64,000 nt of DNA, taken from positions 18,334 through 82,333 of the forward strand of contig VZSF01001139.1 of the NCBI GenBank assembly GCA_013398295.1. Reading direction: 5' to 3'. The translations under genes were made by a program, and so were the position numbers. A model generated the notes under the pieces. The model had not been told where the DNA came from. It was given only the letters and a program-made list of their open reading frames with translations, and ran no database searches. Within the stretch, counting starts at the first letter, position 1; every line of letters starts with the position of its first letter. This DNA is from Chionis minor (taxonomy: Eukaryota > Chordata > Aves > Charadriiformes > Chionididae). This document shows positions 20,801 through 63,301 of the stretch, in pieces.

Positions 20801-20862
20801 CTGAAAAACTCCAAATACCAACTCTGGGAAACCAGATGTCCATGAAATCATCTTCCGAATGG

Positions 20863-30692: not shown

Positions 30693-30738
30693 ATGGGTCC
30701 TTGGCTCCTGACCTTGTTCTGCACAGCTCTGCTGGGAG
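30693..30738 (+). CDS. VH-delta leader exon (L-PART1)
   Basis: The 46-base exon encodes MGPWLLTLFCTALLG plus the first base of a Gly codon, then a GTAAGA donor. Length, hydrophobic core and phase 1 are those of V-gene leader exons. It can join either the acceptor at 31143 (VH relic) or that at 31468 (the VH-delta exon); both begin with two bases completing Gly. Joined to the latter it gives a signal peptide ending TALLGGTLS before HIKMVASG, closely resembling the leader of clan II VH genes. Signal cleavage would deliver the receptor chain to the ER. Which V exon it originally served is unclear. Confidence 0.8.
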
Positions 30739-31143
30739 GTAAGACCCATGAGGGAAGGGAAAGAGACTGGGGCTGAGTAGACTTAGGCTACCCCTGTACA
30801 CCTTGGCCTGCTACTGCCCAACTCTAAATGCCGCTATATAAGACGAACCATGGAAATCATCTTCCCTTGTCAGTTCGAGTGGGATGCTGGTGCAGTGCAG
30901 ATGAGGGACATTTTCAGAGATTTTTCTGAGCATGGAGTAATGGGAAGATATTCCTAGACAAAGCAAATAACTTCCCCAAGGAGCTGTGCAGAGTCTCACT
31001 CTGAGCAGCCTTTGGATTTTCTAGGGGCAGGCCATTACCTGGGGATGTTTACGAGCCCCATGCTTCTTGTCCCTCTGGGTCTCATGTGCAACTGACAAAC
31101 CAGTTCCCCATGTGTCCCTGCCAGCCTGTTCTCTTTGTGCACA

Positions 31144-31253
31144 GGCGTGTGGGTCCAGGCAGAGGTGGTGAAGGAAGCAGGAAGACTGGGGAGGGATGGA
31201 GACTCCATGCTCTCCTTCTGCCAAATTTCTGGATATATATTTAAAGATGTAGC
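31144..31253 (+). pseudogene. truncated VH segment relic (FR1-CDR1 only)
   Basis: After a good acceptor (TTCTCTTTGTGCACAG) the exon reads GVWVQAEVVKEAGRLG, then a DSMLSFCQISGY framework 1 with its conserved Cys, then a CDR1-like stretch. Similarity to VH ends near 31253. There is no framework 2, framework 3, second Cys or recombination signal. It sits inside the intron between the leader and the complete VH-delta exon. It is probably the front of a V gene whose rear was deleted, perhaps by an exchange that also placed its leader ahead of the next V. Confidence 0.78.
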
Positions 31254-31468
31254 ATGTTTACCAGCAGTTACTCAGATTCTCATGGGCCTCCTGCCTCAGC
31301 AATCCTTTGGTCAGTACAAAGAAATCCTGCCACTGCCTCCAGGGATAACTCCTGGAACTACAGGCCAAAATTCTGGTTTTGTGCACCCTACAACCTCAGG
31401 ATGGACTACTGCATTCACGAGCTTTCTCATAAACACTCAAATCTCACCCCTGCCCTTTGTCTTTCCAG

Positions 31469-31784
31469 GTACCCTTTCCCACATAAAGATGGTGGCATCT
31501 GGTCCCAAGGAGGGGAGGGTCTCTGGATCACTCTCACTCACCTGTACTGTAAAAGGTGCACCTCTGGATAGCCCTCGATATGACTGGAATTGTGTCCGTC
31601 AGGCCCCAGGAGGGGAGCTGCAATTTCTAGGTTGGATCTATCCTTTTGGGAACAACACAGGCTATGCCCCAGCCTTTCAAGGCCGAGTCACCATCTCTGC
31701 AGATAAAGACAAAAACAAGGTCTCCCTGAAGCTGCATGCCCTTACAGCCTTAGATACAGCCACCTATTTCTGTGCCAGGCAGCA
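31469..31784 (+). CDS. VH-delta variable exon (antibody-like V segment of a TCR delta locus)
   Basis: This encodes the antigen-recognition V domain of a TCR delta chain built from a VH-type segment. The order is: acceptor ending at 31468, residues TLS of the leader, framework 1 HIKMVASGPKEG with LSLTC (Cys codon 31543), framework 2 with VRQAPGGELQFLGWI, framework 3 FQGRVTISADKDKNK, and DTATYFCAR with Cys codon 31771. The frame is fully open. The pattern is closest to clan II (human VH4-like) VH genes. Assignment to delta instead of heavy chain rests on the D, J and C-delta segments downstream on the same strand. Oddities: the normally invariant framework 2 Trp is Cys (TGT at 31591), and Gly44 and Trp47 (Kabat) are Glu and Phe. 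Those changes could impair folding or alter chain pairing, so functionality is open. Confidence 0.88.
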
Positions 31785-31823
31785 CACAGGGATGCCAATG
31801 GAGGGAGAGGCAGCACAAAAAGG
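31785..31823 (+). promoter_or_regulatory. 23-RSS of VH-delta
   Basis: Heptamer CACAGGG (31785-31791; 6/7 of CACAGTG, with the essential CAC intact), spacer of exactly 23 bases, and nonamer ACAAAAAGG (31815-31823; 7/9). It directly follows the V coding end, and a 23-base spacer is the type expected for TRD and IGH V segments. It is the RAG1/RAG2 cutting site. Confidence 0.9.
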
Positions 31824-31829
31824 GTGAAG

Positions 31830-32585
31830 ACTGCTGTGGTGACAGGGTCCTTTCTCAAAATTACAGTTGCCAGTACTTGCTCTGGGAAATATCAATGACA
31901 TTTGGGATTAATAGATGTTGGAAGTCCAAATCTATCCACGGGCAACTGAATTTGCAGTAAAATGTGACATTTATAGTAGAAGTTAGAAATAAAATTTCAT
32001 GTATGAGTAAGTTCCATGGACAGGTCAATCCCCAAACCCCCCCAACGCAGGGGACTGTTCACTTCCATTCACAGACTTCACCACAAGTTACCATCACCAC
32101 CTCTTTCTCACAACTACCCTGGTCATCCTTCAGTCCCAGGAGAATGCATGCAGAGGGACCACCTCAGGGCATGTCTCTGGGCAGAGATTCTGTGAAGCCA
32201 GTGTAAGGGCTGCAGGAGGGCACGTGGCTCCTTCTTTGTGCAACCCAAATCTACTCTAAGCTGCCTGTTCTGTAAAGAAGGGTGTTGCACCCTTGGAGGG
32301 TAGGTACCCTCACAGCTCTGGGCACAGAGGCTTGGATGCATGTTTTGTTACACACTGGACCTGGGGTGAGGCCTGAGCAGTGACATTCTGCAGTAGCAAA
32401 TGTAAAAACTCACTGCACAAGAGGAAACGCTTTTGAACTGATGGGGCTTTTTGGGTGAGAGGACCCTGCAAGCAAGGGACCATCAGGAGAGAGGGAGGTT
32501 CCTCTGGGGACACAGAGGTGGTGTAGAAGACGAAGGAAGATGGAAAATGGTATCTTGGGCTGCATAAGGCAAAGCTTTGCCAGCA
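31830..32585. other. unassigned sequence in the V to D interval
   Basis: No D or J segment and no known repeat was found by eye. Confidence 0.4.
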
Positions 32586-32589
32586 CATC

Positions 32590-33135
32590 AAGGGAGGGGA
32601 ATCCTTCTCCTCTGCTCAGGACTGGTGAGACTGCACCTGGAGAGCTGTGTCCGGTTCTGGGCTCCCCAGTATGAAAGACATGGACATACTGGAGAGAGTC
32701 CAGCAAAGGGACACAAAGATGATTAAGCAGCATCTCTCCTGTAAGGAAAGGCTGAGAGAGCTGGGACTGTTCATCCTGAAGAAGAGAAGGCTCTGGGGGT
32801 ACTTTATCAATATATAAATACCTGGAGGGAGGGTGTAAAGATGACAGAGCCAGGCTCTTTCTAATGGTGTCCAGTGACAGGACAAGAGGTAATGGGCACA
32901 AACAGAAACACGGTAGGTTCCCTATGAACTTAAGGAAACAGGTTTTACTGTGAGAGTGACCAAGCACTGGCATACGTTGCCCAGAAAGTTTGTGGAGTTT
33001 GCCTCCTTGGAGATACTCAAAAGCCATCTGGACATGGTCCTTGACTACCTGTTCTGAGTGGAGGGGGGTGTTGGACCAGATAACTTCCAAATGTCCCTTT
33101 AAACCTCAACCATTGTCTGATTATGTCATTCTAAG
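32590..33135 (+). mobile_element. CR1 LINE fragment, sense
   Basis: GACTGCACCTGGAGAGCTGT, TCTGGGCTCCCCAGTATGAA and GCTGAGAGAGCTGGGACTGT are the sense-strand counterparts of the ORF2 end in other copies. The 3' end at about 33095-33135 has a mutated terminus. The 226-codon minus ORF over this region is antisense to the element and not a gene. Confidence 0.92.
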
Positions 33136-34138
33136 TTGCCTTCTATAGTTTCCAGGTCAGGCTTGTAGTGAGGCTGAGCATATATTCCTAAGAAGCGCAC
33201 TCACACAGTATACAACATATACATGGCTGGCCACACAGCCCAAGAAACACAGAGAACGCAGCACTCATTACAATATGAATAGCATAAACAGCCTGATACC
33301 ATTTTTCTCTCTGGTTGATCAGGATGAATGGCCATTAATTGAAAACATGTACATGTATTCACATATATACACTGTGGAGACCTCCAGTAGCTGACCCTAG
33401 GTACTCAGGTCTACCCAGTAGTTGTCCACACCTCTGAGGCCCAAAGTCTCCCTCCTGTTGCTGGTTCTCAGACCTGTGCACGCACCCACCCACCCACCCA
33501 GAGACACAGTCTATGGCCCCACTCCTAGTAACTGACTTTAGACACCCAGTCTATGCAGTAGATGGCCCTGGATCCCCTGGTTTCCCAGTTGCCTCAGATG
33601 CAAAAGGTCTTCCTGCTAGGTGGCCTGGACCTTTGGCCTCACTGTACCGACCAGAGGTCCAGCCCCCTGGCCTGTACTCTGGTACTTGGTTTGATCCTCC
33701 TGCCCCCTCCTCCAAGAAGCCAAATTTCAGAGTCTCTTATTTCTCCAGTACCTGGCCCAGGCTTAGGGCTGCTTCAACTCTTGGCTCCCAATCCTCTTAT
33801 CCTACTCATTGGCTAGTCTGGCTTGCTATTCAGTAGTGATTGCACACATTGACGTAACAGCCACACAATATGCACTTACTCTAGTCTCTGAAGTTGCTAG
33901 TACACAGGGGTTCTTATGACCCTCCAATTGCTGGCACCCCTGTGACCCCATTTTTTTCTTTTCCTCAACATGGCTTTTTGTGATGTTTGCTGCTCCATTT
34001 TTTTTACTTCCCATACTATTCTCAAATAAGCAACCTGCCAATAATTACTTTTTTTTTTTTTGTCATTGGTCCCAATTCTATTACTTTCATACCTAAATTT
34101 GATATTTCTGACCGTATTACCTAGCAATTTTGGATCAA
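33136..34138. other. unassigned sequence with a short CCCA repeat
   Basis: No gene recognised. A short tetranucleotide run (CACCCACCCACCCACCCA) lies at 33482-33499, and T-rich runs lie near 33951, 34000 and 34049. Confidence 0.4.
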
Positions 34139-34140
34139 TA

Positions 34141-34925
34141 TAGAATCATAGAATCATGGAATGGTTTAGGTTGGAAAAGACCTTAAAGATCATCTAGTTC
34201 CAACTGCCTGCCATGGGCAGGGACACCTTCCACTAGATCATCCAACCTTTGAACATCTCCAGGGATGGGGCACCCACAACTTCACTGGGCAACCTGTGCC
34301 AGTGTCTCACGACCCTCATAGTAAATAATTTCTTCTTAATGTCTAATATAAATCTACTCTCTTTCAGTTTAAAAGCCTTACCCTGCTACTATTACTACAT
34401 GCCTTGATAAAAAGTCCCTCCCCACCTTTCCTGTAGGCCCCCTTTAAGTACTGAAAGGCTACTCTAAGGTCTCCCTGGAGCCTTCTCCAGGCTGAATAAC
34501 CCCAACTCTCTCAGCCTATCTTCATAGTAGCGATGCTCCAGCCCTCTGATCATCCTTGTGGCCCTCCTCTGGAACTGCTCCAACAGGTTTATGTCCTTCT
34601 TATGTTGGGGGCCCCAGAGCTGAATGCAATGTTCCAGATGGGGGTGTCACAAGAGTGGATTAGAGGGGCAGAATCCCCTCCCTCGACCTGCTGGCCACGC
34701 TTCTTTTGATGCAGCCCAGGATGCGATTGACTTTCTGGACTGTGAGTGCACATTGCCAGCTCATGTTGATCTTCTCATCCACCAACACCACCAGGGGCTG
34801 TTCTCAATCCATTCTCTACCCAGCCTGTATTTTTGTCTTGCAATTGCCCCAGCCCACGTGCAGGACCTTGGATTTCGCCTGGTTGAAATGAGATTTGCAT
34901 GAGCCCACCTCTCAAGCCTGTAAAG
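34141..34925 (-). mobile_element. CR1 LINE fragment, 3' end plus ORF2 end
   Basis: TAGAATCATAGAATCATGGA then TGGTTTAGGTTGGAAAAGAC marks the 3' terminus at the low coordinate. The copy extends about 780 bases through CR1 ORF2 sequence (complement of the region with CCAACAGGTTTATGTCCTTC). It ends against retroviral sequence near 34925, and a minus-strand ORF runs across that junction by chance. Confidence 0.93.
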
Positions 34926-34929
34926 GTCA

Positions 34930-35770
34930 CTTAAAAAAATGTTATCCCCTCCTATGAAGGAGACACGCCACACATACTCAGTCTCAGACCCCCCTGGGTG
35001 CCATGAGTATTTTTCCTGCATCTTAGCTAAGTCAGTAGGAGACCACGGGACAGTCCGTGTATTGGTATGAACATTGTCCTCCTCCTCATTTGTGACCTCG
35101 GTCTTAATGAGCAGCTGTACGAATACAGGCTCTGGGGTATAATCACAATTGTAACCCTCCTTCAGTTTATCATAGTCATCATCATCATACCAGAAATCTC
35201 CATCCCACATTTCAGGGTTAGTATGCTGAGAGATTTCACAGATCTGTGCTGTGGAATCACTAGCTGTCAGCATTGATTCCAGCACAGAGTGCAACTTTTC
35301 CCAAAACAGACTTTCTGCTGATTTTTCACCAGCAGCTAACAGTAACAGCATCTTAAGCAGCTCATTTTCCTTCTTTAAATTTGCATTTTCTATTAGGCAC
35401 GTTCCTAACTGCTCCCGTTCAAAACTTAGTGATTTCTGTAACGCTTCATTGGATGACTTTAAAGTAACATATTCCACATCTGCAATTTGGTCAGGAGGCG
35501 GGGATTCCTTAGCCTCCTCCTCCGTGAATGAAAAACAAGCTCCTAAAATCACGCAGACAATTCCTTTACCCTTACCATCTTTAACCGTTTACTCACTCCT
35601 GCACTGTTCAATTCTTTCTATTATTTTATCTTCACCTTTCCAAAATTTCTGGGCCCACTCTAGTCCCACCTGGAACAGTACACATTTAAATTTTTGTACC
35701 AATTTATCCATGGCAATCCTGCTGACTATGCCAATTTTTTACTGTCGCGTTAAAAGGAATGTAGTTTCAA
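34930..35770 (-). mobile_element. endogenous retrovirus remnant, gag-like region
   Basis: On minus, a short ORF (ATG at 35711, stop at 35589) is followed by a longer open stretch from 35552. The latter includes an acidic, coiled-coil-like segment with leucine and glutamate heptads, then a segment starting PWSPTDLAKMQEKYSWHPGG that I recognise as recurrent in avian endogenous retroviruses, in the gag part. The two pieces are in different frames and the rest of gag, pol and env is absent. The 263-codon ORF at 34761-35552 is a fusion of this remnant with antisense-free CR1 sequence, not a host gene. Confidence 0.72.
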
Positions 35771-35779
35771 TATTTGCCT

Positions 35780-36125
35780 GTCAGAGTCCCAGCAAAGGAC
35801 TTTCACTAAGCCAGATTCACAAAAATTGAGAGCAACAGAACAGATTCGAGGTTGCCATTGATACATTCACTGACTACAATAGTGCTATTAACTAAGGTTA
35901 TATTGCTAGCAAATATAATAATAATATAACAACCTGGGTATAACATTCACCAGAGGCTGAAAGGCGCAGCGCTTACCCAGAAAGGTGTCCCTGCCTGGGG
36001 TGGAGGAAGAGAACGCAGCCCGTCGACTGGTCCGCCAGGTATTCAGATTCTTCTCTTCCAATTTAACAGTTATTTTCTCCATCTTTTTATCCCCAAAATA
36101 CGAGGTTTCCCTCCCCCAGGTGACG
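35780..36125 (-). mobile_element. LTR-like end of the retroviral remnant
   Basis: This follows the gag-like region on its 5' side (minus orientation), where a 5' LTR and leader are expected. The text CGCTTACCCAGAAAGGTGTC resembles in layout TCTTACCCAAAGGTGTCCC at 58518 in the LTR-like block at 58140-59090, which suggests related elements. It is cut off near 36125 where the tripled block begins, so the outer boundary is not visible. Confidence 0.5.
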
Positions 36126-36497
36126 TATAGTATGCTTTGGGTGGAGAGACGAGTGCTATAGTCATGTTTAGTGTGATATCTATAATCTTAATTAGCATAT
36201 ACAGGGGTGTCAACTTTAATACGCATTTCACAGGTAACGAGGCAGAGGTCAGTCATCACGCTCACCAGCCTTTTGAAGAATCAGAGAACTACACAAGTTC
36301 CTGTTACCTTGTCTTCACTGACAGAAAGCAGGGCTGTCCTACACAGTGTCCCCTCCTCATCTGCATCCCACGCTGGACAGGTGAGACTCTGCTAGGTTGC
36401 ACAAGAGATAGCAAGGCTAGTTGTAATTTTCTTTGAGCATAGAGACTTTACCTCATTTTCCGAATCCCAGATAAGATGCACTCACAAGGGACTTCTT

Positions 36498-36704
36498 ATC
36501 TATATAAATACCTGATGGAGGGGAGTAAAGAGGATTAAGCCAGACTTTTCTGAGTGGCACGCAGGGACAGGACAAGAGGAAATGGGCTTAAACTGAAATA
36601 CGAGAAATTCCACTTAAATTATATATATACTTCTTTTTATTTTTTTTTTTAATAAAAAATGTTTTTCACTGTGACAATGACTGAGCACTGGCCTAGAGAG
36701 GTTG
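36498..36704 (+). mobile_element. CR1 LINE 3' fragment, first copy in the tripled block
   Basis: CTATATAAATACCTGATGGA, GGACAGGACAAGAGGAAATGG and CACTGTGACAATGACTGAGC are sense CR1 3' sequences, as at 32810-32970. The copy is cut by the N at 36705. The CACTGTG here is CR1-derived, not a recombination signal. Confidence 0.88.
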
Positions 36705-37076
36705 NATAGTATGCTTTGGGTGGAGAGACGAGTGCTATAGTCATGTTTAGTGTGATATCTATAATCTTAATTAGCATATACAGGGGTGTCAACTTTAATA
36801 CGCATTTCACAGGTAACGAGGCAGAGGTCAGTCATCACGCTCACCAGCCTTTTGAAGAATCAGAGAACTACACAAGTTCCTGTTACCTTGTCTTCACTGA
36901 CAGAAAGCAGGGCTGTCCTACACAGTGTCCCCTCCTCATCTGCATCCCACGCTGGACAGGTGAGACTCTGCTAGGTTGCACAAGAGATAGCAAGGCTAGT
37001 TGTAATTTTCTTTGAGCATAGAGACTTTACCTCATTTTCCGAATCCCAGATAAGATGCACTCACAAGGGACTTCTT

Positions 37077-37425
37077 ATCTATATAAATACCTGATGGAGG
37101 GGAGTAAAGAGGATTAAGCCAGACTTTTCTGAGTGGCACGCAGGGACAGGACAAGAGGAAATGGGCTTAAACTGAAATACGAGAAATTCCACTTAAATTA
37201 TATATATACTTCTTTTTATTTTTTTTTTTAATAAAAAATGTTTTTCACTGTGACAATGACTGAGCACTGGCCTAGAGAGGTTGTGGAGTCTTCATATTCA
37301 AAACTCAGCTAGACATGGCCCTTAGGGGCATGCTTTAGCTGATCTTGCTTTGAGCAGGGATTTTGGACTTGACAATCCTCTAACATGCCTTCTAGACTCA
37401 TCCATTCTGTGTTCCTGTGTTTCTG
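37077..37425 (+). mobile_element. CR1 LINE 3' fragment, second copy in the tripled block
   Basis: Same sequence as the preceding fragment, but continuing to the 3' end near CATTCTGTGTTCCTGTG (about 37402). Probably the same physical element as the other two copies. Confidence 0.88.
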
Positions 37426-37573
37426 GGACAAACATCACCACCCCGCCACACACCCACACTCCCAATTTTAGCANGCACAAGAGATAGCAAGGCTAGTTGT
37501 AATTTTCTTTGAGCATAGAGACTTTACCTCATTTTCCGAATCCCAGATAAGATGCACTCACAAGGGACTTCTT

Positions 37574-37922
37574 ATCTATATAAATACCTGATGGAGGGGA
37601 GTAAAGAGGATTAAGCCAGACTTTTCTGAGTGGCACGCAGGGACAGGACAAGAGGAAATGGGCTTAAACTGAAATACGAGAAATTCCACTTAAATTATAT
37701 ATATACTTCTTTTTATTTTTTTTTTTAATAAAAAATGTTTTTCACTGTGACAATGACTGAGCACTGGCCTAGAGAGGTTGTGGAGTCTTCATATTCAAAA
37801 CTCAGCTAGACATGGCCCTTAGGGGCATGCTTTAGCTGATCTTGCTTTGAGCAGGGATTTTGGACTTGACAATCCTCTAACATGCCTTCTAGACTCATCC
37901 ATTCTGTGTTCCTGTGTTTCTG
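37574..37922 (+). mobile_element. CR1 LINE 3' fragment, third copy in the tripled block
   Basis: Repeats 37077-37425 exactly as far as can be compared, then continues into unique sequence at 37971. Confidence 0.88.
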
Positions 37923-37970
37923 GGACAAACATCACCACCCCGCCACACACCCACACTCCCAATTTTAGCA

Positions 37971-38471
37971 GCTCCACACAGAAAAAGAAGCAATACTAAG
38001 AAAAATTAAGCTGTGAAGAATTTGTGCATCACAGATTCATTTTGCTACACAATGAAAATATTTGAGATATAAATAATTTTATGTCCAGACTAGTCCTGAT
38101 ATGTAAGAGAAAATTAAACTGACAGTTAATGTGCTCGAGACAGCTGGTCCTTGACATTTTTAAGAAAATATCCTACCTTAAATCTCTAGAAGTTTATTAA
38201 AAATACATGTGGAATCAAGTCATTTGAGTTGAAAGGCCCCTTACAATCCAAACTGATCCATATTCAGTATCACCAAGTATGGGCAATATTTCAGGAAAGT
38301 TGCATTCTTACCTTCATCTACCATAAAAGTGATGCTAGGAACACTATTTTTAATTTATGGCAATTGCTGTGTGGTTTGATTATCCAGCAATAAAACAGCA
38401 GAGGAAACAAGTGCAGCATTCAAAAGACATCAAAGAAGGGGTGTCACCTGACACTTAAACAAAAACACTGA
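37971..38471. other. unassigned sequence just before D-delta 1
   Basis: No RSS, J or repeat family recognised, apart from a possible very diverged CR1 trace near 38215-38260 that I do not call. Confidence 0.4.
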
Positions 38472-38499
38472 TGTTTTTATATGACTATTCATCACTGTG
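38472..38499 (+). promoter_or_regulatory. 5' 12-RSS of D-delta 1
   Basis: Nonamer TGTTTTTAT (38472-38480; 7/9 of GGTTTTTGT), spacer of exactly 12 bases, heptamer CACTGTG (38493-38499; 7/7). Its 12-base spacer can pair with the 23-RSS of the VH-delta segment. Confidence 0.85.
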
Positions 38500-38511
38500 T
38501 GGACTAGGTAT
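38500..38511 (+). other. D-delta 1 diversity segment
   Basis: The 12-base coding segment TGGACTAGGTAT lies exactly between a 12-RSS and a 23-RSS, as TRD D segments do; IGH D segments carry 12-RSS on both sides. It can be read in all three frames (WTRY, GLG, or with one stop), contributing Gly/Trp/Tyr residues to CDR3. Confidence 0.85.
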
Positions 38512-38550
38512 CACAGCAGTTGAAGGGGACTGAACCACCCAACACAAACT
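38512..38550 (+). promoter_or_regulatory. 3' 23-RSS of D-delta 1
   Basis: Heptamer CACAGCA (38512-38518; 5/7, essential CAC intact), spacer of exactly 23 bases, nonamer ACACAAACT (38542-38550; 7/9). Weaker than the signals of D-delta 2, so this D may be used less often. Confidence 0.8.
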
Positions 38551-40160
38551 GACTTCCTGAAAAGCCTGAAGGTGCAACGTACTCCACGTTCTCACAATGT
38601 CATCTTCCCACAGACTACTGCATCCTGAAGAACATATTTGATGCTGTTTGTGATTCAAGCTATGGGACAATCACTATATGTCATGGCAGTTTTTGTTGCA
38701 CTCAAATATGGATGTTGGGTTCATGACCATTTGATTTTGAACATGTAATTATCAACATCAGTTCAGCAGATAGGTTTTTATATGCTACAGTTTAGAAGTT
38801 TCTACCTAAGTTACTCATTGTGTCCCCTTTGTATCCATTACAGAGTACCAAGTGGTTCTAAGAAGAAATTCGTCGCTTCCCAAGGTATTTTAGACAGACA
38901 CAATAGGTCAGTCAATTGCATTTGCGGCATGACTCTTTCTCCACCACATTCAGATGACTACCTCAAATGCAGCCCCTGGAAGCTAGATGAGAAGACACTA
39001 GCACCATGTGGCTTTTAAGACAAAAGACAGCTCCAGTTTTCCCTGACCAGCTATACAGATCATGACCCTGCACTGTACCACTGAGCATCATCATTGAAAT
39101 GTGCCCCAGTATCTTCATCTCAGCTCACAACAATGCCCTTCTATCTACCACCTCAATCTAGTATTACTGTTCTCCCTCAGCTTCACCATTTTTCCACATC
39201 TGTTTCTTCTTTAGATCAATGATCATGCATTAATTCCTTCTCGAACTGCATGATTAATATTTTATGAGCCATAATCTCTATGGCTCAGATCATGATCTCC
39301 TTGTCTTTGCCCTTAACAGCTGCAGTTTCTTCCCATTCATTTTTTCCTGAAAGGTCACTTCAACAAGTTTCTGACTATACCAACTTACCTCACTGTCACA
39401 GGAAATCACTCTTAAACATCATCATGGGCTATAGATTGCTGTGGAAGGTGGGAGCTGCAAAGTCTTCATTGTTCCTGAACTCTAAAGAGGGTTTAGTACT
39501 CGCCTGAAATCACCCAGGCAAATAATAGCTTCAGGGAAGAGAGCAGGGCCCATCCACTCTTGGGCCATTTCCAGTCGTGGTCTATGCTGTGGTCAGCAGC
39601 TACAGATCTCCCTCCCACCCCTCTTTTTGAGAACCCTCACTGCCAACTTTCAATAATTCTGAACTGTTAGTTGAGACTAAGAGTTTTGCACCCTTTCTCC
39701 TTGCTGTCCCTTTCACTTGGGTAGATCAATCCTATAATAGCACACAATTGCCTTATCATCTTACGTGATAGTTACTTACATGCAGTAGCATATATAATTT
39801 ATTTCTTTTTTTCACAATGTCAATAGATTTCCCTTCCTTTCTGACCTCTTCTACCTTGACAACAGTTAGAGAGGAGTATTGAATCATATTTTGTTGGTAC
39901 ACCACCTGCACCTGTCTGTACCAGGTTGTCTTTTTTCCCTACAAAGCCGTTAACGTGAGGTTAACTTAGAGTTACTACCTCAGGGTAACAGAACCATGGC
40001 ATTTCCATTTTCAAGGATTATTCTGTTTTAACACTGTCCAGGGAAGGGGGTACACTTATACCACATAATTAATGTTTCAATTAAAGGTAATTTGCTTGTT
40101 TGATGTGGCTGTGTTTACATCCATCCATTGCAAGATTATATTTTATAGCATCTTCAGTAA
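38551..40160. other. D-D interval, unassigned
   Basis: No further RSS pair was found by eye. A GGTTTTTAT (8/9 nonamer) at 38773 has no heptamer at 12 or 23 bases. No J motif with a donor site was found. Confidence 0.4.
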
Positions 40161-40164
40161 GTCA

Positions 40165-40629
40165 GACAACACCTAACCACAACAGCTCTGCTTCCTTAAT
40201 AATCAGCAAAGTGGCAGCTGCTTTCCTGTCCAGCCTACTGTCCTTGTTCCAGCAGGGATAGGATCAATTTTCACAAGGAGCTGGCACTGGAAGCAAGTGT
40301 TCCATACTATGTGACACTATGCCCAGTATGTAGCTGCCATGCCCAGTATATAGCTGGGGAGCTGGCCAGGGGAGGGTGCAGGAATCACAGCTTGGGAGCG
40401 GGCTGGGCACTTCCCAGGTCTGGTTGGTTAGCAGCGGTGCATTAATTGTTTTGTACACTGCTCTATCACTATTATTGTTGCTGTTTTCCTCTTTCCTTTG
40501 CTGTTCTGTTACACTGCCTTTATCCCAAACCACGAGTTTGTGTGGTTTTTTTCCCTATTCTGCTGCTGGAGGGGGGCAGGGAGCAATGACTGTGTGGTTC
40601 TTTGTTTCAGGCTGAAGCTAAACCATGAC
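40165..40629 (-). mobile_element. avian ERVL-type solo LTR
   Basis: On minus it starts TGTCATGGTTTAGCTTCAGC (complement at 40610-40629), followed by a CTCC-rich part, GTTTGGGATAAAGGCAGTG and an AT-rich AGCAACAATAATAGTGATAG stretch. This matches my memory of avian ERVL-family LTRs. No internal sequence adjoins it. It lies between the two D-delta segments and lengthens that interval. The far end near 40165 is approximate. Confidence 0.72.
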
Positions 40630-41261
40630 ACCTACGCATGACGAATGTATTCAAATAAAATTTATGTTCACCTGCATATTGTGCTTCAGACAAGACTTTA
40701 GGTGCAGGTGGCTCTAAGGAATCAGAATTTATCCATCATGTGGGATTTGACCAATCTGCTTTACACCATCCAGAGCAAACCCCTTATTGAATAACTCCTC
40801 CCATAGAACAATTTATCTTTACCTAATAAAGAACAATCACTTCTTTTTAACTTTTAAAGATTCCAAAAACACGATAAAGGTTTCCTAAGGCACCAAGTGA
40901 CCCTCAGCGCTGGCACATCCAGAAGATAAAAACTCTACAACCCCAGACTGAGAGTATTCCTCTTGGTCCTGGACAACACAAAATATTTCAAAGTAAAAAA
41001 ACCCAAAAACAAAACCAAACCCAGAACCTTTCTGCAACTCTGAAAATCTTCGCTAATTGCTGTAGAATAATACCCATTTTTCATTAGGCTAAATTCTGAG
41101 TCTTCCCAGAGCAACATTATAATCCTACAGGTCCCTACAGGTTCGTAGGCTCGGTTTCAGGTCCTTATTTTAAAGTCTATGTGAGTTCTTCATGTGGTAT
41201 ATAAGGTATACGACTACCTGCCTCATATGAAATACTGCACGGTAAAAGGGAAGGAAGAGGC
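40630..41261. other. unassigned sequence before D-delta 2
   Basis: AT-rich, with A-runs near 41000. No repeat family or RSS found. Confidence 0.4.
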
Positions 41262-41289
41262 ACTTTTTGTAACTAAGTATATCACTGTG
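41262..41289 (+). promoter_or_regulatory. 5' 12-RSS of D-delta 2
   Basis: Nonamer ACTTTTTGT (41262-41270; 7/9), spacer of exactly 12 bases, heptamer CACTGTG (41283-41289; 7/7). Confidence 0.93.
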
Positions 41290-41306
41290 CTTAGAACTTG
41301 GAGTAG
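41290..41306 (+). other. D-delta 2 diversity segment
   Basis: The 17-base segment CTTAGAACTTGGAGTAG sits exactly between perfect heptamers of opposite orientation, with 12 and 23 spacers on the correct sides. Frames give LRTWS, LELGV or a frame with a terminal stop after trimming. It can join VH-delta or D-delta 1 on its 5' side and the J on its 3' side, so V-D-D-J joins are possible. Confidence 0.95.
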
Positions 41307-41345
41307 CACAGTGACACAAACACTGTAAGGTTTCATACAAAAACC
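41307..41345 (+). promoter_or_regulatory. 3' 23-RSS of D-delta 2, consensus-perfect
   Basis: Heptamer CACAGTG (41307-41313; 7/7), spacer of exactly 23 bases, nonamer ACAAAAACC (41337-41345; 9/9). This is a perfect match to the RAG consensus. Confidence 0.97.
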
Positions 41346-41668
41346 TGAGACTGCAAAAGGAACGATACATTCTGAGAAAGAAAGGAAAAAGGGAATGTGT
41401 TGAAGAAGAGAACTGCAGAATTCCCACAAGCATTTAATCTGGAAGTATATTGCTTACTGGACTAATAGAAGAGAAAAGGGTTTTTAAAGCTTTGGCCTGG
41501 ATCAAGTTGTTTGAAATCACTCTACTATGGCATTATGTTTTTCACTTCTCACAGTTTTGGAAACGATGGTGACTTTGGAGCATTTTCATGGCAGTCCATG
41601 TATGGATCCTTTGGACAAGCCTTTTATTCCCTGATTTTATACACCTTTAGAGTGTGGTGAGGAAAGTG

Positions 41669-41697
41669 CGTTTATTTGACTATGTGCAAACAGTGTG
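41669..41697 (+). promoter_or_regulatory. 12-RSS of J-delta 1
   Basis: Heptamer CAGTGTG (41691-41697; 6/7, with the coding-side GTG intact). The nonamer is weak: GTTTATTTG at a 12-base spacer (5/9) or CGTTTATTT at a 13-base spacer (6/9). It is accepted because it is placed directly before a clear J coding segment. Confidence 0.7.
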
Positions 41698-41749
41698 GCA
41701 ACAGACAAGCTCGTATTTGGAACTGGGATCACTTTTTCAGTTGAGCCAA
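41698..41749 (+). CDS. J-delta 1 joining segment
   Basis: The 52-base segment encodes ATDKLVFGTGITFSVEP plus one base, then a consensus GTAAGT donor. The F-G-x-G motif forms the J beta-bulge of the V domain. The TDKL...FG.G....VEP pattern closely resembles human TRDJ1 as I remember it (TDKLIFGKG...VEP), which supports a delta identity. It ends in phase 1 and the constant exon begins with two bases (AG), giving Lys and then IQEESAPE, so J and C read in frame after splicing. A 12-RSS precedes it. Confidence 0.94.
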
Positions 41750-42168
41750 GTAAGTTCCACTGGTTTTAGTACTAATGTATTTCTTAAGTTTGTGGTGTGG
41801 TGGACAAAGGGATTGTGTGATGTGACAGCATAACGAGAAATTTCTGCTGCCTTGGATCTCTTGAACACACTGGCCAGGTGTGTGAGTCCTCAGCTCATAC
41901 TTAGTTAACAAAGCTTTTCAGGAATAACATTTTACCAGCTATGTGCATCAGCTTTACTCCACAGACCCTCACTGTCTCCTGTAGCAACACTGCTAAATTT
42001 AAGACTGTTGTTTATACCAAGAGGGGACGGTGTCTTAGTCCAGTTCCAGTATAAGGTGAAAGCAGTTGACTTCTTGCTTGTGTGTAACACAAAGGTATGC
42101 GGAAAGGAAAAAAGGAGATGTAAATTATTGCAGGAAGAAGTAGTTCCCATGGAAAGACAGGGCATATT

Positions 42169-42238
42169 AGTTTTTGCAGCAACTGCTTGAAATGTGAGCA
42201 AGCCTTTTATATTTAGAAATGGCACTCTTCTGGACATG
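42169..42238 (+). pseudogene. decayed second J-delta segment
   Basis: Nonamer AGTTTTTGC (42169-42177; 7/9), 12-base spacer, heptamer AAATGTG (42190-42196; 5/7 with GTG intact), then coding SKPFIFRNGTLLDM. The expected motif F-G-x-G-T-x-L is seen as F-R-N-G-T-L-L: one Gly (GGA) has become Arg (AGA). No GTAAGT-type donor follows; the nearest is a poor GTCTTT. The combined layout is convincing for a former J. It is probably unable to splice to the constant gene. Confidence 0.6.
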
Positions 42239-42239
42239 G

Positions 42240-42775
42240 TCTTTATAAGGATGGACCATCTCCCCCAGCCTTTGTGTGACGGTGTGAAATTTGGGGCAAT
42301 GGGTGAGTTTTTGTGTTGACTATTATTGTCCTTAAACACTCAGTTGCATACCACCACCTGAACACACACAGAGGCATGGGATTCTCTTAGGTGGTAGCTC
42401 ATATCTGCAAGACCCATAGAGCTCTACACTAAATCTTTAGAGCATCTTCCATGCATATTTTGGGGTAGATGAATGCAGCTCCAGTTCCTGTGGAAGTACA
42501 GAATCCAAAGATACTATTTTGATAACATCATTTGCAGAAGTAGGACAGCAAGATACTGCCAGCTTCCATCAGCCCGATCTCAATCTATGCTAATATCAAC
42601 TTGCCAGTTCTGAGTACAAAAGATATTCTACCATGAACAATCAACCAACAAATGGTGTTGGTGGGTGAAAGTCTAAGTAATGGTATTGCCTTTTCAGACA
42701 AATACAGAAGCCCTAATGTGAGTTTGAGTTTCTATACAGAAAGTATCTTGCATGCTTTTTAAAGCAAACTGAATT
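42240..42775. other. unassigned J-C intron sequence
   Basis: An AGTTTTTGT (8/9 nonamer) near 42306 has no heptamer at the right distance. No further J segment is called here. Confidence 0.4.
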
Positions 42776-43065
42776 TCATAGAATTATAGAATGCTTTAGG
42801 TTGGAAGGGACCTTAAAGATCATTTAGTTCCAACCCCCCCTACAATGGGCAAGGACACCTCCCACTAGACGTGGTTGCTCAAAGCCCCATCCAGCCTGGC
42901 CTTGAACACTTCCAGGGATGGGGCAACCACAACTTCCTTGGGCAACCTTTGGATACTTTCTTCCTAGTATCTATTCTAAATGTATCCTCTTCCAGTTGAA
43001 GCCATTAACCCTCATCCTCTTACTACATGACCTTGTAAATATTCGCCATTCAGACCCATTGTATC
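42776..43065 (-). mobile_element. CR1 LINE 3' fragment
   Basis: TTCATAGAATTATAGAATGC then TTTAGGTTGGAAGGGACC is the CR1 terminus in reverse complement. It inserted in the J-C intron and ends near 43065. Confidence 0.93.
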
Positions 43066-44455
43066 AGTAATTTCGGTGTCATGATTCCTGTTCTTCAGGA
43101 AAGAGGGGGGAAAAAAATCTTTCCTCAAAAAGTAGGCTTTAGAAACCACCTGTTCATCCAAAGACAAGAATGGATTTTCCAGGTTTCCAGAATGCTGGTG
43201 TCCTGACTCATTAGTGCTATTTTTTTCAATTTCATGAAAGATATTAAAAAGGAATTAAAACAGCTAAGGACACTGCAGGAGCTGGGCTACCTGTGAATCT
43301 CCAAGCACAAAAGACATAGAAAATATCCTTTAATCACTACACAGTTTCTGAGACATCTCCTCCTAAGAATCCTGTAAAAGAATAGCTGAGGAATTATTTG
43401 GTTCAGTCTTTGTATACTTCTCATTGGACGAAGCCAACATCCACAAGAGAATGGAATATACAGCAAATTCTGTGATTTTGTAAGATTAAGAGGGAAAAGA
43501 AGTGTAATTGTTTGCATATTAACTGCTTTTTGTATGCAATACAAATATAACTGCTTCCCCCCATGCCACCCAGGACAAAGATGCCCTGAGGACCTACAAC
43601 AGATCTGTTTCTTTCTGAAGGGACAGTCGGAAAGAAGACAGAATAAATGATCGATTTGGAATGGCACCAAAGTACTCTGTTAGACACCGCAGTGTCGTTC
43701 TTTAAGATGGCTCAACATTATGCAGTGAGTTGGTCTCATGACTTGGAAACCTCTCCAGAGCTCACATAATAGTATTAACTTGTTAACATAAGAAAGCTTT
43801 GTATGCTTGGGTCAAGTCCCACACAGAAATATTACAGAAACTTTCAAAGAATGGAATTTGGAAAGAAAAACCTTCTTGGAATAGAACATTTGTTAATGAA
43901 AGGTTTAACTTAATCTTCCATTTCAGCAACATTATTTTGTATCTGCAAGTAATCCCACTTATTGGAACAGTATTGTGGAGTGGAGTAACAAACTCTCTTC
44001 TCTCCCTATGTGTTAAGCCTTTTAGTGTCTTCAGGTGGAGGATTTTTTGGTAATAAAAAAAGGATTTTTTTAATATATATCATCTTACAAGCGTATAAGC
44101 TACCCTTGAAGTAAATGTTCTTTTTAGTATCTGAATTGTTATGAATTCAAAACTGATATGATAATTTGTATTGTATTCTTAAAAGTTCCCTTACACACAA
44201 AGACACACACACACATTGTGGTAAAAACAAGTTTAGGAGCCCAAAGAATTAGAAGCTCTAGTGAAAACTCCACTGTTATACTCCCTTTCTGTCCTTGATC
44301 TGCTCTTTGGGAAACAGGAGGAAGAAATAAATACAGAATGACTCTCAGCTGTCAGGACACACACATGGTTGGACTATATCTGAACTATAAATGATTTAGC
44401 TCTCAGGAAAGTATGCAGAAAATAAAGTCGTCCCAAAATGATGCTTCTTTTTCAG
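43066..44455. other. J-C intron remainder
   Basis: A J-like FGMAPKYSV reading occurs at 43654, but without a convincing RSS or donor. A CA microsatellite lies at 44192-44215. Any intronic enhancer would be expected around here, but none is recognisable by eye. Confidence 0.4.
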
Positions 44456-44740
44456 AGATTCAAGAAGAATCTGCCCCAGAAGTCATTGTGCTTAAATCAA
44501 AGGAACCCAAAAAATACGACAACAAACTGAACATGGCTTGTTTGGCAAGGTCTTTCTACCCTAAGAACATCAGCCTTGATGTGCCCAAGAGTGACATTGT
44601 ATATGATCTGAAGGCACCTCTTGTCACATCTGAGGGGATGTACAGTACCATGAAAGTAGTTGGAGTGGAATTGGATGCAGAGGTTACCTGCAAGGCTGTA
44701 CACACGAGAAACAACACTACAGCCAGCGTAATTCTGCCAG
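44456..44740 (+). CDS. TRDC: TCR delta constant gene, exon 1 (IgC domain)
   Basis: This encodes the membrane-proximal immunoglobulin constant domain of the TCR delta chain, which pairs with TCR gamma on gamma-delta T cells. A pyrimidine-rich acceptor (CTTCTTTTTCAG) ends at 44455 and a GTACGG donor follows 44740, giving 285 bases in phase 1 to 1. Key features are APEVIVLKSKEP, LNMACLARSFYPKNISLDV (Cys codon 44539) and LDAEVTCKAVH (Cys codon 44689). The two Cys are 50 residues apart, suiting the intradomain disulfide. There are two N-glycosylation sequons (NIS, NTT). It matches C-delta in the SFYPK-type motif and in lacking the usual strand C Trp. The open frame continues past the donor to 44820, but that part is intron. 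Confidence 0.95.
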
Positions 44741-45396
44741 GTACGGTGTTATGGTTCAAACACAATGTGATTCTGGGAGGTGTATCTTCCAAGATTTTTT
44801 CTTTCACTTTGAGAACCTAGCAGGAACTAGTAAGTACAATCAGAAAGGTTAGGCACTTAAGTGAAGACGAATATTCAAAAGCACCCAGCACATGTGACCT
44901 TAATTCAATTATTTAAACACCTGGAGTTTTCTTCCCAAGAAAGAAAAAACAAAACAAAAAACCCCCTAAGCACACCCACCAATATTTGTGAGTCCACATT
45001 TACCTAAGGCAAAATAGTTCAAGGGACATAAGTGTACATGCCTTCTAGAAGAAAGCATGAAATAACTTTTATGAAAATGCAAAATTAAAAAGGACATATT
45101 ATTTTTTCCTCCAAAAATCTCCTGGTTATTTTTTGATCACTTTTTAAATTGCTCTTTTCCTATGGTAAAATTCATTTCAAAAGGGAGAGAAAATAAAACT
45201 CACCAATCGTGGGTTTTTTCTCTGCAGTCACATGTAGAACGCTAACTTTTCTCTTCAAGTTAATCTCAGAATTAATGACCTGCCATCTGATTCTCCAATA
45301 CTGCTTCTCTACTGCTGGGAAAAGAACCATGTTTTGTATATTTTTTGTTTTATATAGTTTGGATACAATTTATAGTGTCTCTCGATCATTCAACAG

Positions 45397-45459
45397 AAAA
45401 GAAGACTGAAGAATTTGAAACAGTTAATGATTGCAACATTAGAGATGCCTCTATAAAAG
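45397..45459 (+). CDS. TRDC: TCR delta constant gene, exon 2 (connecting peptide)
   Basis: This is a 63-base exon between an acceptor ending CATTCAACAG and a GTTAGT donor, phase 1 to 1, thus 21 codons. It reads EKKTEEFETVNDCNIRDASI and has a Cys (codon 45432) placed to form the disulfide with the TCR gamma chain. It is short, like connecting-peptide exons of other TCR constant genes, and sits 656 bases after exon 1. Its identity is set by position and phase more than by sequence. Confidence 0.88.
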
Positions 45460-45910
45460 GTTAGTTGCCTAAAGGAACAATAGAGTACGGTTACTTTATT
45501 AGGGATTCAGTGACAATGCATGAAAACGCATTGTCTTTTGTACAGAAATATCTGAACTGTAGATACTTATCAAGTAAGAAGCTGCACTTTTTGTGGACTC
45601 AATACCAATTTCTCATGCAGAAATGTCAAAACTGGAAATACTTATTCAGAAATAACCTGCTGTTTCAGGTTAAAAGACAAAAAAAGCTTACAAATTTCCA
45701 TGGGATAAAACAGCAACGGGAAGTAAATTCCTCACTGGGATGACATCTCCTCTTTCTCTGCACTTGATACATTCCTCTTTCATATTTTCCTTTGTTCACA
45801 CTTCCCTCATCCCCTTGTGATGCATGGATTTTCCTTCTTTTTATTTTTTATTTTTTTTGGTGGGGTGTAATATTGAGACCACGCTGTCTTTCCTCTTCTT
45901 TTAAAAACAG

Positions 45911-46026
45911 GTGTTGAAATGGAGAAAGTGAATGTGCTGTTCATGGCCGTTTTGGGTTTGAGAGTCCTGCTGGCAAAAAGCATTGCTCTGAATACAATGC
46001 TGAGTATCAAGCTATATTTGTTCTGA
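45911..46026 (+). CDS. TRDC: TCR delta constant gene, exon 3 (transmembrane and short tail)
   Basis: After the acceptor TTTTAAAAACAG, the exon encodes GVEMEKVNVLFMAVLGLRVL then LAKSIALNTMLSIKLYLF and a TGA stop (46024-46026). The EKVN start, LGLR and LLAK motifs are diagnostic of the delta chain transmembrane segment. The buried Arg and Lys are the charges that contact CD3. The cytoplasmic tail is essentially absent, as usual. The stop is followed within one base by a GTAAGA donor, so the exon is spliced on to an untranslated exon, the same layout I recall for human TRDC. Confidence 0.96.
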
Positions 46027-46503
46027 GGTAAGAAACACATCACTCAGTCCCTGGAAACACAGGAGGGAAGTGGAAGGAATGACTAGTTGGCTTTGCATCC
46101 TTCTGTAACCCCACAAGGAGTGTCAACAGTTCAGCTCTTCCTCTTTTCACTGCATAAATTAATGTAACCCCCAACTTGCACCTCACCCCCAAATTGCCTT
46201 TGCATTAGGCTAGTTCAGAGCATCTCAGGTTCTATCAGAAACCTTCTGCTGGTTGTTTCAAGTGGCATAGCACAAAGTCTGGATAAATGTCCAGATTAGC
46301 AAAAACTATAAAGGGAAAATCCAAAAAGCCAACAACTGTGAAAAGTGGGACAGAAAAAGGAGAAGGGAGAATCTCGATGATCTGGTATCCAAAATGACCA
46401 AAAAAAAAATAATTGTCCGATCCATTCCAGAAAAACAGAAACTCAGCACCATTGCATTAAATGTGAATAAGAATTTAAAAAACCCCATTGTTTGCTCTTT
46501 CAG

Positions 46504-46615
46504 GTACTGGGTAAATGAGCCAGCAGTGGTCTGAAGAAGAGCAGGAAAGAACACACAACAGGATAATTTAAATGTCACGGGTCAGCTTTGCTACCAATAA
46601 ATATCTAAAGAATCA
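46504..46615 (+). other. TRDC: TRDC 3'UTR exon 4 with polyadenylation signal
   Basis: A good acceptor (TTGTTTGCTCTTTCAG) ends at 46503 and pairs with the donor just after the stop codon. AATAAA lies at 46596-46601. A second AATAAA at 47193-47198, followed by a T/G-rich stretch, could end a longer transcript. Confidence 0.68.
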
Positions 46616-49835: not shown

Positions 49836-51940
49836 TATGCCAGATGAGGAAACATAATCAGTGAGTAGCAAAATTTATGCAGAGTAACACTAGCCTTTGT
49901 CCCAGCATAAAAAGGTGCCTAGGCTGAAAATTCAGCTTTACCTTGGTACTAGATTTCTTGCAAGACCTTCAGAAACCGGTGCATACTATAGGCACCAAAT
50001 ACCTGAACACAGCAACACCTGCCAACTTGTTTGCTTCAACCTCCACGGACCAGACATTTCTCAAGAGAATAGAGTGACAGCAGAGCAGCTTCTGGGATGG
50101 GCCTTGGACTCTGGGACTGATCCGTGCCTGTGGGGTCACCCTTGAGGCCTGGGAGAAAAGAGTGATGTGAAGGCACTTCACAGAGGAAAAAAGTAAACAG
50201 ATATTTAAAAGGACAGAGCTCCAATAGTACTTTGATGAGGACAGAATTAATTGGGCTGGGAGAAGATAATTTGGACAAGTGTTGGTAGTGAGTTCTCTCT
50301 CAGGTTAAATCTCTGCAATGCAATTTGATAGCTGAGCTTCAGCAGCTGCTGTCTTCCAGAGAGGACACAAACTTATCAGTTTGCCTGTGTACTTCCACCC
50401 AGGGCTGGCAGGAAAGAACACTGAGCTCCAACTAACTCCAGCTTGGGAGAAGTAGCAGCAGGTGAGCCTCCCTGCCCCCAGGGCAAAACATGAGCCTGCA
50501 GCAGCAAATGGCAAAGGCAGACCTGAAGGGAGAACTATGGCCCTCAGGCAAGTAGAGGGCTTTTCGTCATTTCTACTGGAGCTGGAGAGAGGACAAAGTT
50601 GGAAAGGGGTAGGGGGACAGCGTGTGGAGGCCAACTGTGGCATCTGTGGGCATGAGACTTGCTATCAGAGCAGCGATCCTTCTTCATCACAAAACACATT
50701 TCTTATGGGGTCATCCACGTGTATTATCTGGGAAATCATCATTCACTAAACATTTCTGGTTTGGCCAATTCACCTCCTCTTCCAAAGACAATTCCCAGGG
50801 ATGGAGGAATGAATCCTTTCAAACTTTTCCCCCACAGACATGTTTGCCTTATCCAGCTCTGGGCACAGTTGGACCCCTGTACAGCCCCTCTGAAATGTTT
50901 GGCCCTGCAGGTGAGGGGGAGGTAGAGCAGAGCGAGGAAGAAAGGAGGGAGGGCAGATGCAGAGTTGCCTGTAGAAATGGAAATTCTGCTTGGGCGGGGA
51001 GCAGAGAATTTCAGCATCTCCCTGACCCTGCTGCTCTTTTGGAACAGAGCCTTGGATCCACATCTCCTGATGGACCTGTTCTGTGGCACTACACCCTGAG
51101 CACCTCATGGCCAGGCACTTCAGGGCTTTGTCCACTGCCCTGTAGTGCTCTGGCCAAGGACACTTCTGATGGTTGTGGAAGTCCTGGGCTCATGGCCTGC
51201 TCCACTCCATGCTTGTGCCTCAACGTTGTTAGCTGGGCAAGGGGATGGCTCTTCCCTGGCTCCCCAGGATGCAGCAGGCGAGGACCAGGCCCTAGCAGTG
51301 TGGGATGGGATATGGGTCAGCCCAACTTCTATCCCTGTTTGTTAGAAGGGTGATTCTGAGGATTGCCTCCAGCAGCATCAGCCCCTCAGACAGATGAATG
51401 CAGCTCTTCTGAGACATGAGATTAGGCCTCAGCATGGTGATGCCTGTAGAAGAGGGGTGGGAGTCCTTCACCTGGCTGTCTGACCATGAGCACTTGGTTT
51501 TATTGTGTTCTTGGCTCTGGATTTCTGCCTTTCGTGCCCAGCCAGAGAGACTAAAGAGATGCGCTTGTTGTGAACATGTGTTTTGGAGGACTTGAGACTG
51601 CCCTGGAACAGGGCTGCTTCAGGGACTTAGAATGTTAGTCCCAGAATGACAAATAAGTATTCGATCCCCTGCAAAGCTTCTCAGCCTGACTATAGTGTTT
51701 CTACTTAGCTGCCATGTGGAGCAGGGTTGTGAGATTTGATGCTGTCTGGCAGAAGGTAAGGTTTCACTTCAGAGACGTCTCTCAGCAGAATTGGTTGCTA
51801 TACATTGGTCCCAGAGTCTTTTGCTGCCTGTTTCTTAACTGGCTTTAGTTCTATGATGGATGAGTCAGATTACGGAGGCCTTTTGGATTGAGTCAGGTGT
51901 TGTGGTGGTGCAATTTTTCCCCCAAACTCCTAGGCTTCTC
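49836..51940. other. unassigned sequence
   Basis: The 243-codon ORF at 50622-51353 on + is the longest here. It overlaps four other ORFs, has no recognisable domain or splice context, and lies in GC-richer DNA where chance ORFs are longer. I do not call it a gene. Confidence 0.35.
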
Positions 51941-51949
51941 GGTACCTGG

Positions 51950-52385
51950 CATGATTTCCTCCCCACCTACACTACCTAGTAATACAATGACCAGAACAAT
52001 ACATAATGGTCTAACATGAAAGAAAGAAAGGGTGGAGAGCAATGGACCAGAACACTATGGCAAACCCTTACTGTATCTGGTTCTCATGGCCCTACCGTTT
52101 GAAGATAATAACTATAATTATTACCCCTGACACCATAGGGGTCATGGCCAGAGAGAGGGGGGTACCAGGACCACAAGTCCTAGCAAGTCCTGGGCTTGCA
52201 TAACAGATGGAAAGTATCAGACTGCTCCATTGTCCGAACTGGGCCAGAGTGGAAAACTCCCTCATGAAAGGCAATTAGCTCGGACCGTGTAAGTAGTGAT
52301 TCTAGTAAAGACCCATTGAGCTCTTCTGGATCGCAGCGGGCTGTGGCCAGTACCTCCCCTGCGCTGGGATGCCGCTCAGGCAAAC
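51950..52385 (-). mobile_element. inverted copy of the LTR block at 6105-6545
   Basis: The reverse complement of this stretch matches 6105-6545 closely, for example TTTGCCTGAGCGGCATCCCA here against TTTGCCTGAGCAGCATCCCA, and CATTCCA/CATTAT-rich ends. The copies differ by a small insertion near 52100-52160. No coding sequence. Probably an LTR, with its internal part lost. Confidence 0.65.
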
Positions 52386-52850
52386 ACTTTTTTTCCTTCT
52401 GCTTTCAGGAAAATCACCAAGGGCAGCTCCTGATGCTGCCAGCTGTGACCTGGACTGCAGCAGGTGCCCATGTGAACCACCCTTGCTGGCACATGGATCA
52501 AAATGTGTACACTTGTTCCCATGGACACACCTGCATGAATGTATGAATAAGATCAGTGTGTGACTCTAGAGCTGAAACTCCCATCCCCAGAGAGCCTGCC
52601 TGCATGAAGAAGAAAACAAAGACAGTAACACAGACAAGTGGAGAAACGAGGAAAAATACAGTGAGAGTCTGGCTGAGAGAGGCAAGGGGCAGGGGCAGCT
52701 GGGCACTCAGGACAGCGTTCTCCTTACCCAGCTGTGGACACCACCTCCCAGACACCAACATTTCCAAGCAGTTGCTCTCAGCCCCTATGCTCTGCAGGGG
52801 GATCTGTGTACGCAGCTGAGAGAGGCACCACAGCTCTGTTGGAGCTCTGG
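52386..52850. other. unassigned sequence
   Basis: Nothing recognised. Confidence 0.4.
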
Positions 52851-56675: not shown

Positions 56676-56677
56676 CT

Positions 56678-63300: not shown

Positions 63301-63301
63301 G

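What the first reader, a model, noticed from the sequence alone, without database searches (positions are those of the whole stretch)
30693..46615. A complete, compact VH-delta / D / D / J / C-delta receptor locus in 16 kb
Seen: leader exon, VH exon with 23-RSS, two D segments each with a 12-RSS on the left and a 23-RSS on the right, a J with FGTG and GTAAGT, and a C-delta gene in phase-1 exons, all on one strand. Known: TCR delta chains that use antibody-like VH genes exist in birds, amphibians and monotremes. Inference: this one locus could make a delta chain with an antibody-type V domain using a single V gene, so diversity would come almost entirely from junctions and from use of one or both D segments.
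Basis: partly seen in the sequence, partly recalled or inferred. Interest (0 to 1): 0.93.

Follow-up and report, generated by a model that had tools for sequence, protein, structure and literature searches.

The report
Bird second TCR-delta locus with VH
A stretch of DNA, most likely from a bird, holds a small, complete-looking set of gene pieces for a T-cell receptor delta chain that uses an antibody-type variable domain; such loci are already described in chicken and duck, so this is another example with some unusual details.

Summary
In detail: leader, VH-type V exon with 23-RSS, two D segments (12-RSS left, 23-RSS right), one J and a TCR-delta constant gene lie in order on one strand with matching splice phases. 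Chance is unlikely for the D segments: 1 of 1500 shuffles of the V-J interval gave any such pair; 2 were observed. The constant region best matches TCR delta chains; the V matches antibody heavy chains. Motif scans found no other J or complete V in the window; an olfactory-receptor gene and a relic of one lie upstream. This is the known avian 'second TCR-delta' kind, described in chicken (chr 10) and duck (PMC10972964, PMC5278385). It differs from those descriptions: two D segments instead of one, a stop directly after the membrane segment instead of duck's 62-residue tail, and an in-frame VH fragment in the leader intron. Cautions: the V domain's core Trp41 is Cys, and the J signal is weak, so the receptor may be impaired. 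The 16 kb span is probably inflated by about 1.1 kb (two exact duplicates joined by single Ns). Unlinkage, species and expression could not be tested.

The parts
30693..30738 (+). leader exon L-PART1 (MGPWLLTLFCTALLG + 1 nt), donor GTAAGA
31145..31250 (+). partial VH segment (L-PART2 + FR1 + start of CDR1: GVWVQAEVVKEAGRLGRDGDSMLSFCQISGYIF) with its own acceptor, inside the leader intron and in frame with the V exon; its right end is approximate
   Evidence: best PDB match opossum TCR mu chain (opossum is recalled; the call says 'T cell receptor mu chain') E=0.0014, antibody VH next; no Pfam hit
31469..31784 (+). VH-delta exon (L-PART2 TLS + V domain HIKMVASGP...YFCARQ); core Trp41 replaced by Cys
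   Evidence: Pfam V-set 2.7e-10; antibody VH
31785..31823 (+). 23-RSS of V: CACAGGG-23-ACAAAAAGG
38472..38499 (-). 12-RSS left of D1: CACAGTG-12-ATAAAAACA
38500..38511 (+). D1, TGGACTAGGTAT
38512..38550 (+). 23-RSS right of D1: CACAGCA-23-ACACAAACT
41262..41289 (-). 12-RSS left of D2: CACAGTG-12-ACAAAAAGT
41290..41306 (+). D2, CTTAGAACTTGGAGTAG
41307..41345 (+). 23-RSS right of D2: perfect CACAGTG-23-ACAAAAACC
41669..41697 (-). weak RSS left of J: CACACTG, spacer 12 or 13, poor nonamer
41698..41749 (+). J segment ATDKLVFGTGITFSVEP, donor GTAAGT at 41750
44456..44740 (+). C-delta exon 1 (Ig C1 domain)
   Evidence: (C1-set below cut-off)
45358..45459 (+). C-delta exon 2 (connecting peptide with one Cys)
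45911..46027 (+). C-delta exon 3 (membrane segment with Arg and Lys, stop TGA at 46024-46026)
46504..46615 (+).

Best explanation
This is a bird's stand-alone 'second TCR delta' (TCR delta-2, VH-delta) locus. In developing T cells, RAG would join the single VH-delta to D1, D2 or directly to J under the 12/23 rule (inferred). The exon would be spliced to the delta constant gene to give a delta-2 chain, which would pair with a TCR gamma chain and CD3 through one connecting-peptide Cys and the basic membrane residues (inferred from sequence and family knowledge). With one V and one J, diversity must come from CDR3. In this allele the V domain lacks the core Trp41, and the J signal is weak, so efficiency or folding may be reduced.
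For: Order, strand, RSS types and splice phases fit. C region: the top nine of 60 listed PDB rows (426 matches up to E=10) are TCR chains at 7.7e-16 to 9.7e-14 (seven named delta, one 'TRA@ protein', one 'TCR'), the printed alignments covering the domain, connecting peptide and membrane segment; the best Ig heavy chain is at 0.0011. V: the 60 listed of 7729 PDB matches are antibody heavy chains, nanobodies and antibody-derived constructs as far as their names tell. The J scan found no other J, so none in the 17.4 kb after C, and the V scan no other complete V (tblastn with this V gave no second hit better than E=0.2); this argues against the conventional TRA/D locus. Chicken TRDVH1 has the 5' motif QIEMVTT (PMC10972964) and the window V starts HIKMVAS (I, M, V shared, 3 of 7). 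[quoted passage not shown]
Against: Chicken and duck are described with one D; here there are two. Duck C-delta-2 has five exons and a 62-residue tail; here the stop follows the membrane segment directly, as in a conventional C-delta. Trp41 is Cys and the J RSS is weak. No octamer, CRE or TATA motif was found in about 390 nt upstream of the leader. C1-set in Pfam is below its cut-off (17.2 against 21 bits). Unlinkage to TRA/D, expression and orthology by alignment were not testable.
Confidence: 0.82

Rival explanations
1. It is the species' conventional TRD within TRA/D, with a VH-delta gene, and the TRAJ cluster and other V genes lie outside the window.
For: Two D segments and a C gene without a long tail match conventional avian TRD (chicken 2 D, PMC10972964; duck at least two D and a three-exon C-delta, PMC5278385). 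VH-delta at the TRA/D locus is known in frog (PMC7615758).
Against: 0 TRAJ-like segments in 17.4 kb downstream and 0 other complete V genes in 30.7 kb upstream by motif scan; upstream there are an olfactory-receptor gene and a relic instead. One J only, against two J-delta in chicken and two functional in duck.
Confidence: 0.12
2. It is a decaying delta-2 locus: the parts are recognisable but no longer make a working receptor. (Compatible with the same family assignment, so its odds overlap those of the best explanation.)
For: Trp41 to Cys; weak J RSS; V heptamer CACAGGG; chicken VH-delta is classed as ORF for a poor RSS and missing leader (PMC10972964).
Against: No stop or frameshift in leader, V, J or the three coding C exons, and GT/AG splice borders throughout; both D segments keep back-to-back RSS pairs and the D2 23-RSS is perfect.
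Confidence: 0.25
3. Read-through V exon: the leader is spliced to the upstream acceptor (exon start 31145), giving a 640-nt exon with a VH FR1-like extension ahead of the full V domain. (Also compatible with the family assignment.)
For: The acceptor is good by eye and in phase, and the frame is open from 31096 to 31824.
Against: The extension is not a complete Ig domain and has no Pfam hit. The acceptor at 31469 gives an ordinary-looking signal peptide and V. An open 108-codon stretch occurs in 21 of 714 overlapping local samples, so the open frame is only mildly unusual.
Confidence: 0.07

Closest known systems
Duck TCR delta-2 locus (PMC5278385; outline, located passages, sections 5 and 17 seen)
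   Same: About 16 kb; single VH-delta with 23-RSS, D with 12/23-RSS, J with 12-RSS, then C-delta; transcribed
   Different: One D against two here; C-delta-2 has five exons and a 62-residue tail against three coding exons and no tail here
[quoted passage not shown] Parra 2012 not held, not read)
   Same: Stand-alone cassette with one IgH-like V; V start shares I, M, V with QIEMVTT
   Different: Single D; chicken V is reported to lack a usable L-PART1, here a leader exon is present 730 nt upstream; the reasons given for chicken's ORF class do not include a missing Trp
Conventional avian TRA/D (PMC10972964, PMC5278385)
   Same: C-delta type, two D segments, three coding C exons (duck)
   Different: No TRAJ, TRAV or TRDV found in the window; one J
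Mammalian TCR mu (PMC7615758, passages seen)
   Same: VH-like V with a delta-like C; the intronic V fragment best matches a TCR mu chain (E=0.0014)
   Different: No V next to C, no second complete V domain; the fragment match is weak (single-domain E 0.15) and shared with antibody VH

Membership tests
Avian second TCR delta (TCR delta-2) | V gene of antibody heavy-chain type | tested here: met
   antibody VH; V-set 2.7e-10
Avian second TCR delta (TCR delta-2) | Constant gene of TCR delta type | tested here: met
   best match a TCR delta chain at 7.7e-16
Avian second TCR delta (TCR delta-2) | V 23-RSS, D 12/23-RSS, J 12-RSS on one strand | tested here: met
   the J signal is weak and fits spacer 13 better than 12
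Avian second TCR delta (TCR delta-2) | Locus unlinked to TRA/D | tested here: inconclusive
   no TRAJ or other complete V found in the window; whole genome not answered
Avian second TCR delta (TCR delta-2) | Single D (descriptive in chicken and duck; I do not take it as defining) | tested here: not met
   two D segments
Avian second TCR delta (TCR delta-2) | Five C exons with 62-residue tail (duck description; I do not take it as defining) | tested here: not met
   stop at 46024 directly after the membrane segment
Avian second TCR delta (TCR delta-2) | Transcribed V-D-J-C product | not testable with these tools
   no RNA data
Conventional TRA/D | TRAJ cluster between C-delta and C-alpha | tested here: inconclusive
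   0 J-like segments in 46.6-64 kb, but the window ends at 64 kb
TCR mu | Second V domain next to C | tested here: not met
   only one complete V motif in the window, at 31543-31773

The most novel reading that the evidence does not exclude
The VH-delta captured its leader from a second, now mostly deleted VH gene: the locus once had tandem VH genes, and a deletion fused leader plus FR1 of one to the V exon of the other. If shared across birds, this would explain why chicken VH-delta was reported without a usable nearby leader, and the species' delta-2 chain would be a two-D, tail-less variant with a Trp-less V core.
Probability: 0.2. Interest if true: 0.4.

Novelty: new member of a known kind. 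Interest (0 to 1): 0.3.

Why it matters
It gives a full, readable copy of an unusual receptor locus and shows that D number, tail length and a V core residue vary within this kind. It offers a testable answer to where chicken's VH-delta leader went. It does not reveal a new receptor type.

Tried and rejected
Rejected: chance RSS pairs (1 of 1500 shuffles). Rejected: an IgH locus (the C gene is TCR delta; no Ig C gene was recognised among the ORFs sent to Pfam: 10 of the 269 ORFs of 70 aa or more, plus four typed peptides, so not a full scan; the printed ORF list was cut in the middle). Rejected: TCR mu layout. Searched without result: Rfam, octamer/CRE/TATA upstream of the leader, Pfam for the intronic VH fragment. 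DNA comparison of that fragment with the V exon showed no duplication beyond the 31-nt overlap that I had left in both pieces. A weak DsbB hit (0.089, below cut-off) to the membrane peptide was discarded as chance. An off-by-one acceptor (31144) gave a false frame; corrected to 31145. Species could not be named: the bird origin is inferred from recalled avian CR1-type repeats and from the avian literature. No structure prediction was run.

Literature: eight searches answered. Parra 2012 (J Immunol), Parra 2012 (platypus) and Liang 2023 (avian C segments) are not held and were not read; Liang 2023, seen only in a reference list, may already list this species. Nothing here is claimed to be absent from print.

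Full report
What is there. On the + strand of the window, reading 30693 to 46615, lie a leader exon, a VH-type V exon, two D segments, a J and a four-exon constant gene. Spliced in silico, leader plus V gives MGPWLLTLFCTALLGGTLS, a plausible signal peptide by eye (no predictor was run), followed by HIKMVASGP...YFCARQ without a stop; J plus C gives a 184-residue stretch ending in KLYLF and a stop. The coding junctions are phase 1 with GT/AG borders.

More than chance. D1 and D2 each have a 12-RSS on the left and a 23-RSS on the right. In the 9912-nt interval from V to J, two such pairs at 12 of 16 or better on both sides were seen; 1 of 1500 dinucleotide shuffles had any. Over the whole window, both strands, 2 pairs reached a summed score of 24, against a mean of 0.0 in 60 shuffles; one unrelated weak pair (11 + 11) was seen on the minus strand near 2.0 kb. 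The V 23-RSS scores 13/16 (3 sites this good on the + strand of the 64 kb and 0 on the minus strand) and sits at the end of the V frame.

What the parts are. The constant region matches TCR delta chains over domain, connecting peptide and membrane segment (best 7.7e-16; 426 matches up to E=10, 60 shown; some ubiquitin chains appear near 7e-10 without any stretch passing on its own, and Ig heavy chains from 0.0011). The best entries are human by recall. Pfam C1-set is only sub-threshold (17.2 bits against 21), V-set passes (40.8 against 26). The V matches antibody heavy chains; the first alignment is to an antibody heavy-chain V with the SGPG-type start and RVTVSVDKSKN pattern (an IGHV4-like label would be my recall). 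That alignment places Cys where Trp41 stands in the antibody (codon TGT; the number 41 is recalled IMGT numbering). The chicken survey's passages give only the poor RSS and the missing leader as reasons for its ORF class (PMC10972964), so the Trp is presumably kept there.

Surroundings. Upstream, 14742-15824 holds an uninterrupted olfactory-receptor frame (Pfam 7tm_4, 6.6e-50) and 20851-21306 (-) part of another (3.7e-14); the two regions are 91% identical over 579 nt in inverted orientation. A motif scan of the whole window found one J and one complete V. These scans need a Phe/Trp-Gly motif, a donor and a CAC heptamer with a score of 10 or more (J), or a Cys-Trp/Cys-DxxYxC pattern (V), so unusual segments could be missed. 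The span between V and D1 holds two exact duplicates (578 and 496 nt), each pair separated by a single N (36705, 37474), most likely unmerged contig overlaps; the true locus would then be about 14.8 kb.

The intronic VH fragment. At 31145-31250, after a good acceptor, the sequence reads GVWVQAEVVKEAGRLGRDGDSMLSFCQISGYIF, the pattern of leader part 2 plus FR1 of a VH gene; its best PDB match of 46 up to E=1 is a TCR mu chain at E=0.0014 (single-domain E 0.15), then antibody-type VH. It is in frame with the V exon. My reading, an inference: two tandem VH genes were fused by a deletion, so the leader now serving the V came from the lost gene. The alternative, a long read-through exon, is possible but weak: 21 of 714 overlapping local samples of 108 codons are open.

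Comparison with the known. Birds with a separate TRD locus using VH-delta are established (PMC5278385, PMC10972964, PMC7615758, PMC11754216, passages seen). The duck locus spans about 16 kb, is most expressed in lung, and 16 unique thymus cDNA clones, 13 of them productive, were found. This window shares the plan. It differs by a second D and by a constant gene ending at the membrane segment, where duck's last three exons encode membrane segment, a 62-residue tail and UTR. Those two features recall conventional avian TRD, so I keep a 12% rival that this is the conventional locus seen from one end. Against it stand the TRAJ and V neighbours that were not found.

How it most likely works. RAG joins V (23) to D1 or D2 (12), D to D, and D (23) to J (12); direct V-J is also allowed by the rule. 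This is inferred from the signals. D1 reads WTRY or GLG in two frames and D2 LRTWS or LELGV, so CDR3 diversity would rest on D use, trimming and N additions. The chain would pair with TCR gamma; this has not been physically demonstrated even for the known second TRD chains (PMC11754216).

Verdict. Confirmed observation, mostly correct interpretation, known kind. The new content is the variant anatomy and the cautions about function.

Noticed in passing
36127-37970: Exact direct duplicates (578 and 496 nt) each joined by a single N at 36705 and 37474, probably unmerged contig overlaps in the assembly.
   Followed up: yes
14742-15824 (+) and 20851-21306 (-): An uninterrupted olfactory-receptor frame and an inverted, 91%-identical partial copy upstream of the receptor locus.
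   Followed up: partly
34764-35588 (-): A 275-residue open frame, resembling an avian endogenous-retrovirus gag piece by recall, lies between V and D1; no Pfam or NCBIfam hit.
   Followed up: partly
6107-6601 and 51901-52387: Inverted 90%-identical pair about 45 kb apart, on either side of the locus; not identified.
   Followed up: no
8510-9394 and 56677-57534: A 79%-identical 885-nt repeat pair, CR1-like by recall.
   Followed up: no
63140-64000 (+): A 287-codon open frame running to the end of the window with no Pfam hit.
   Followed up: no
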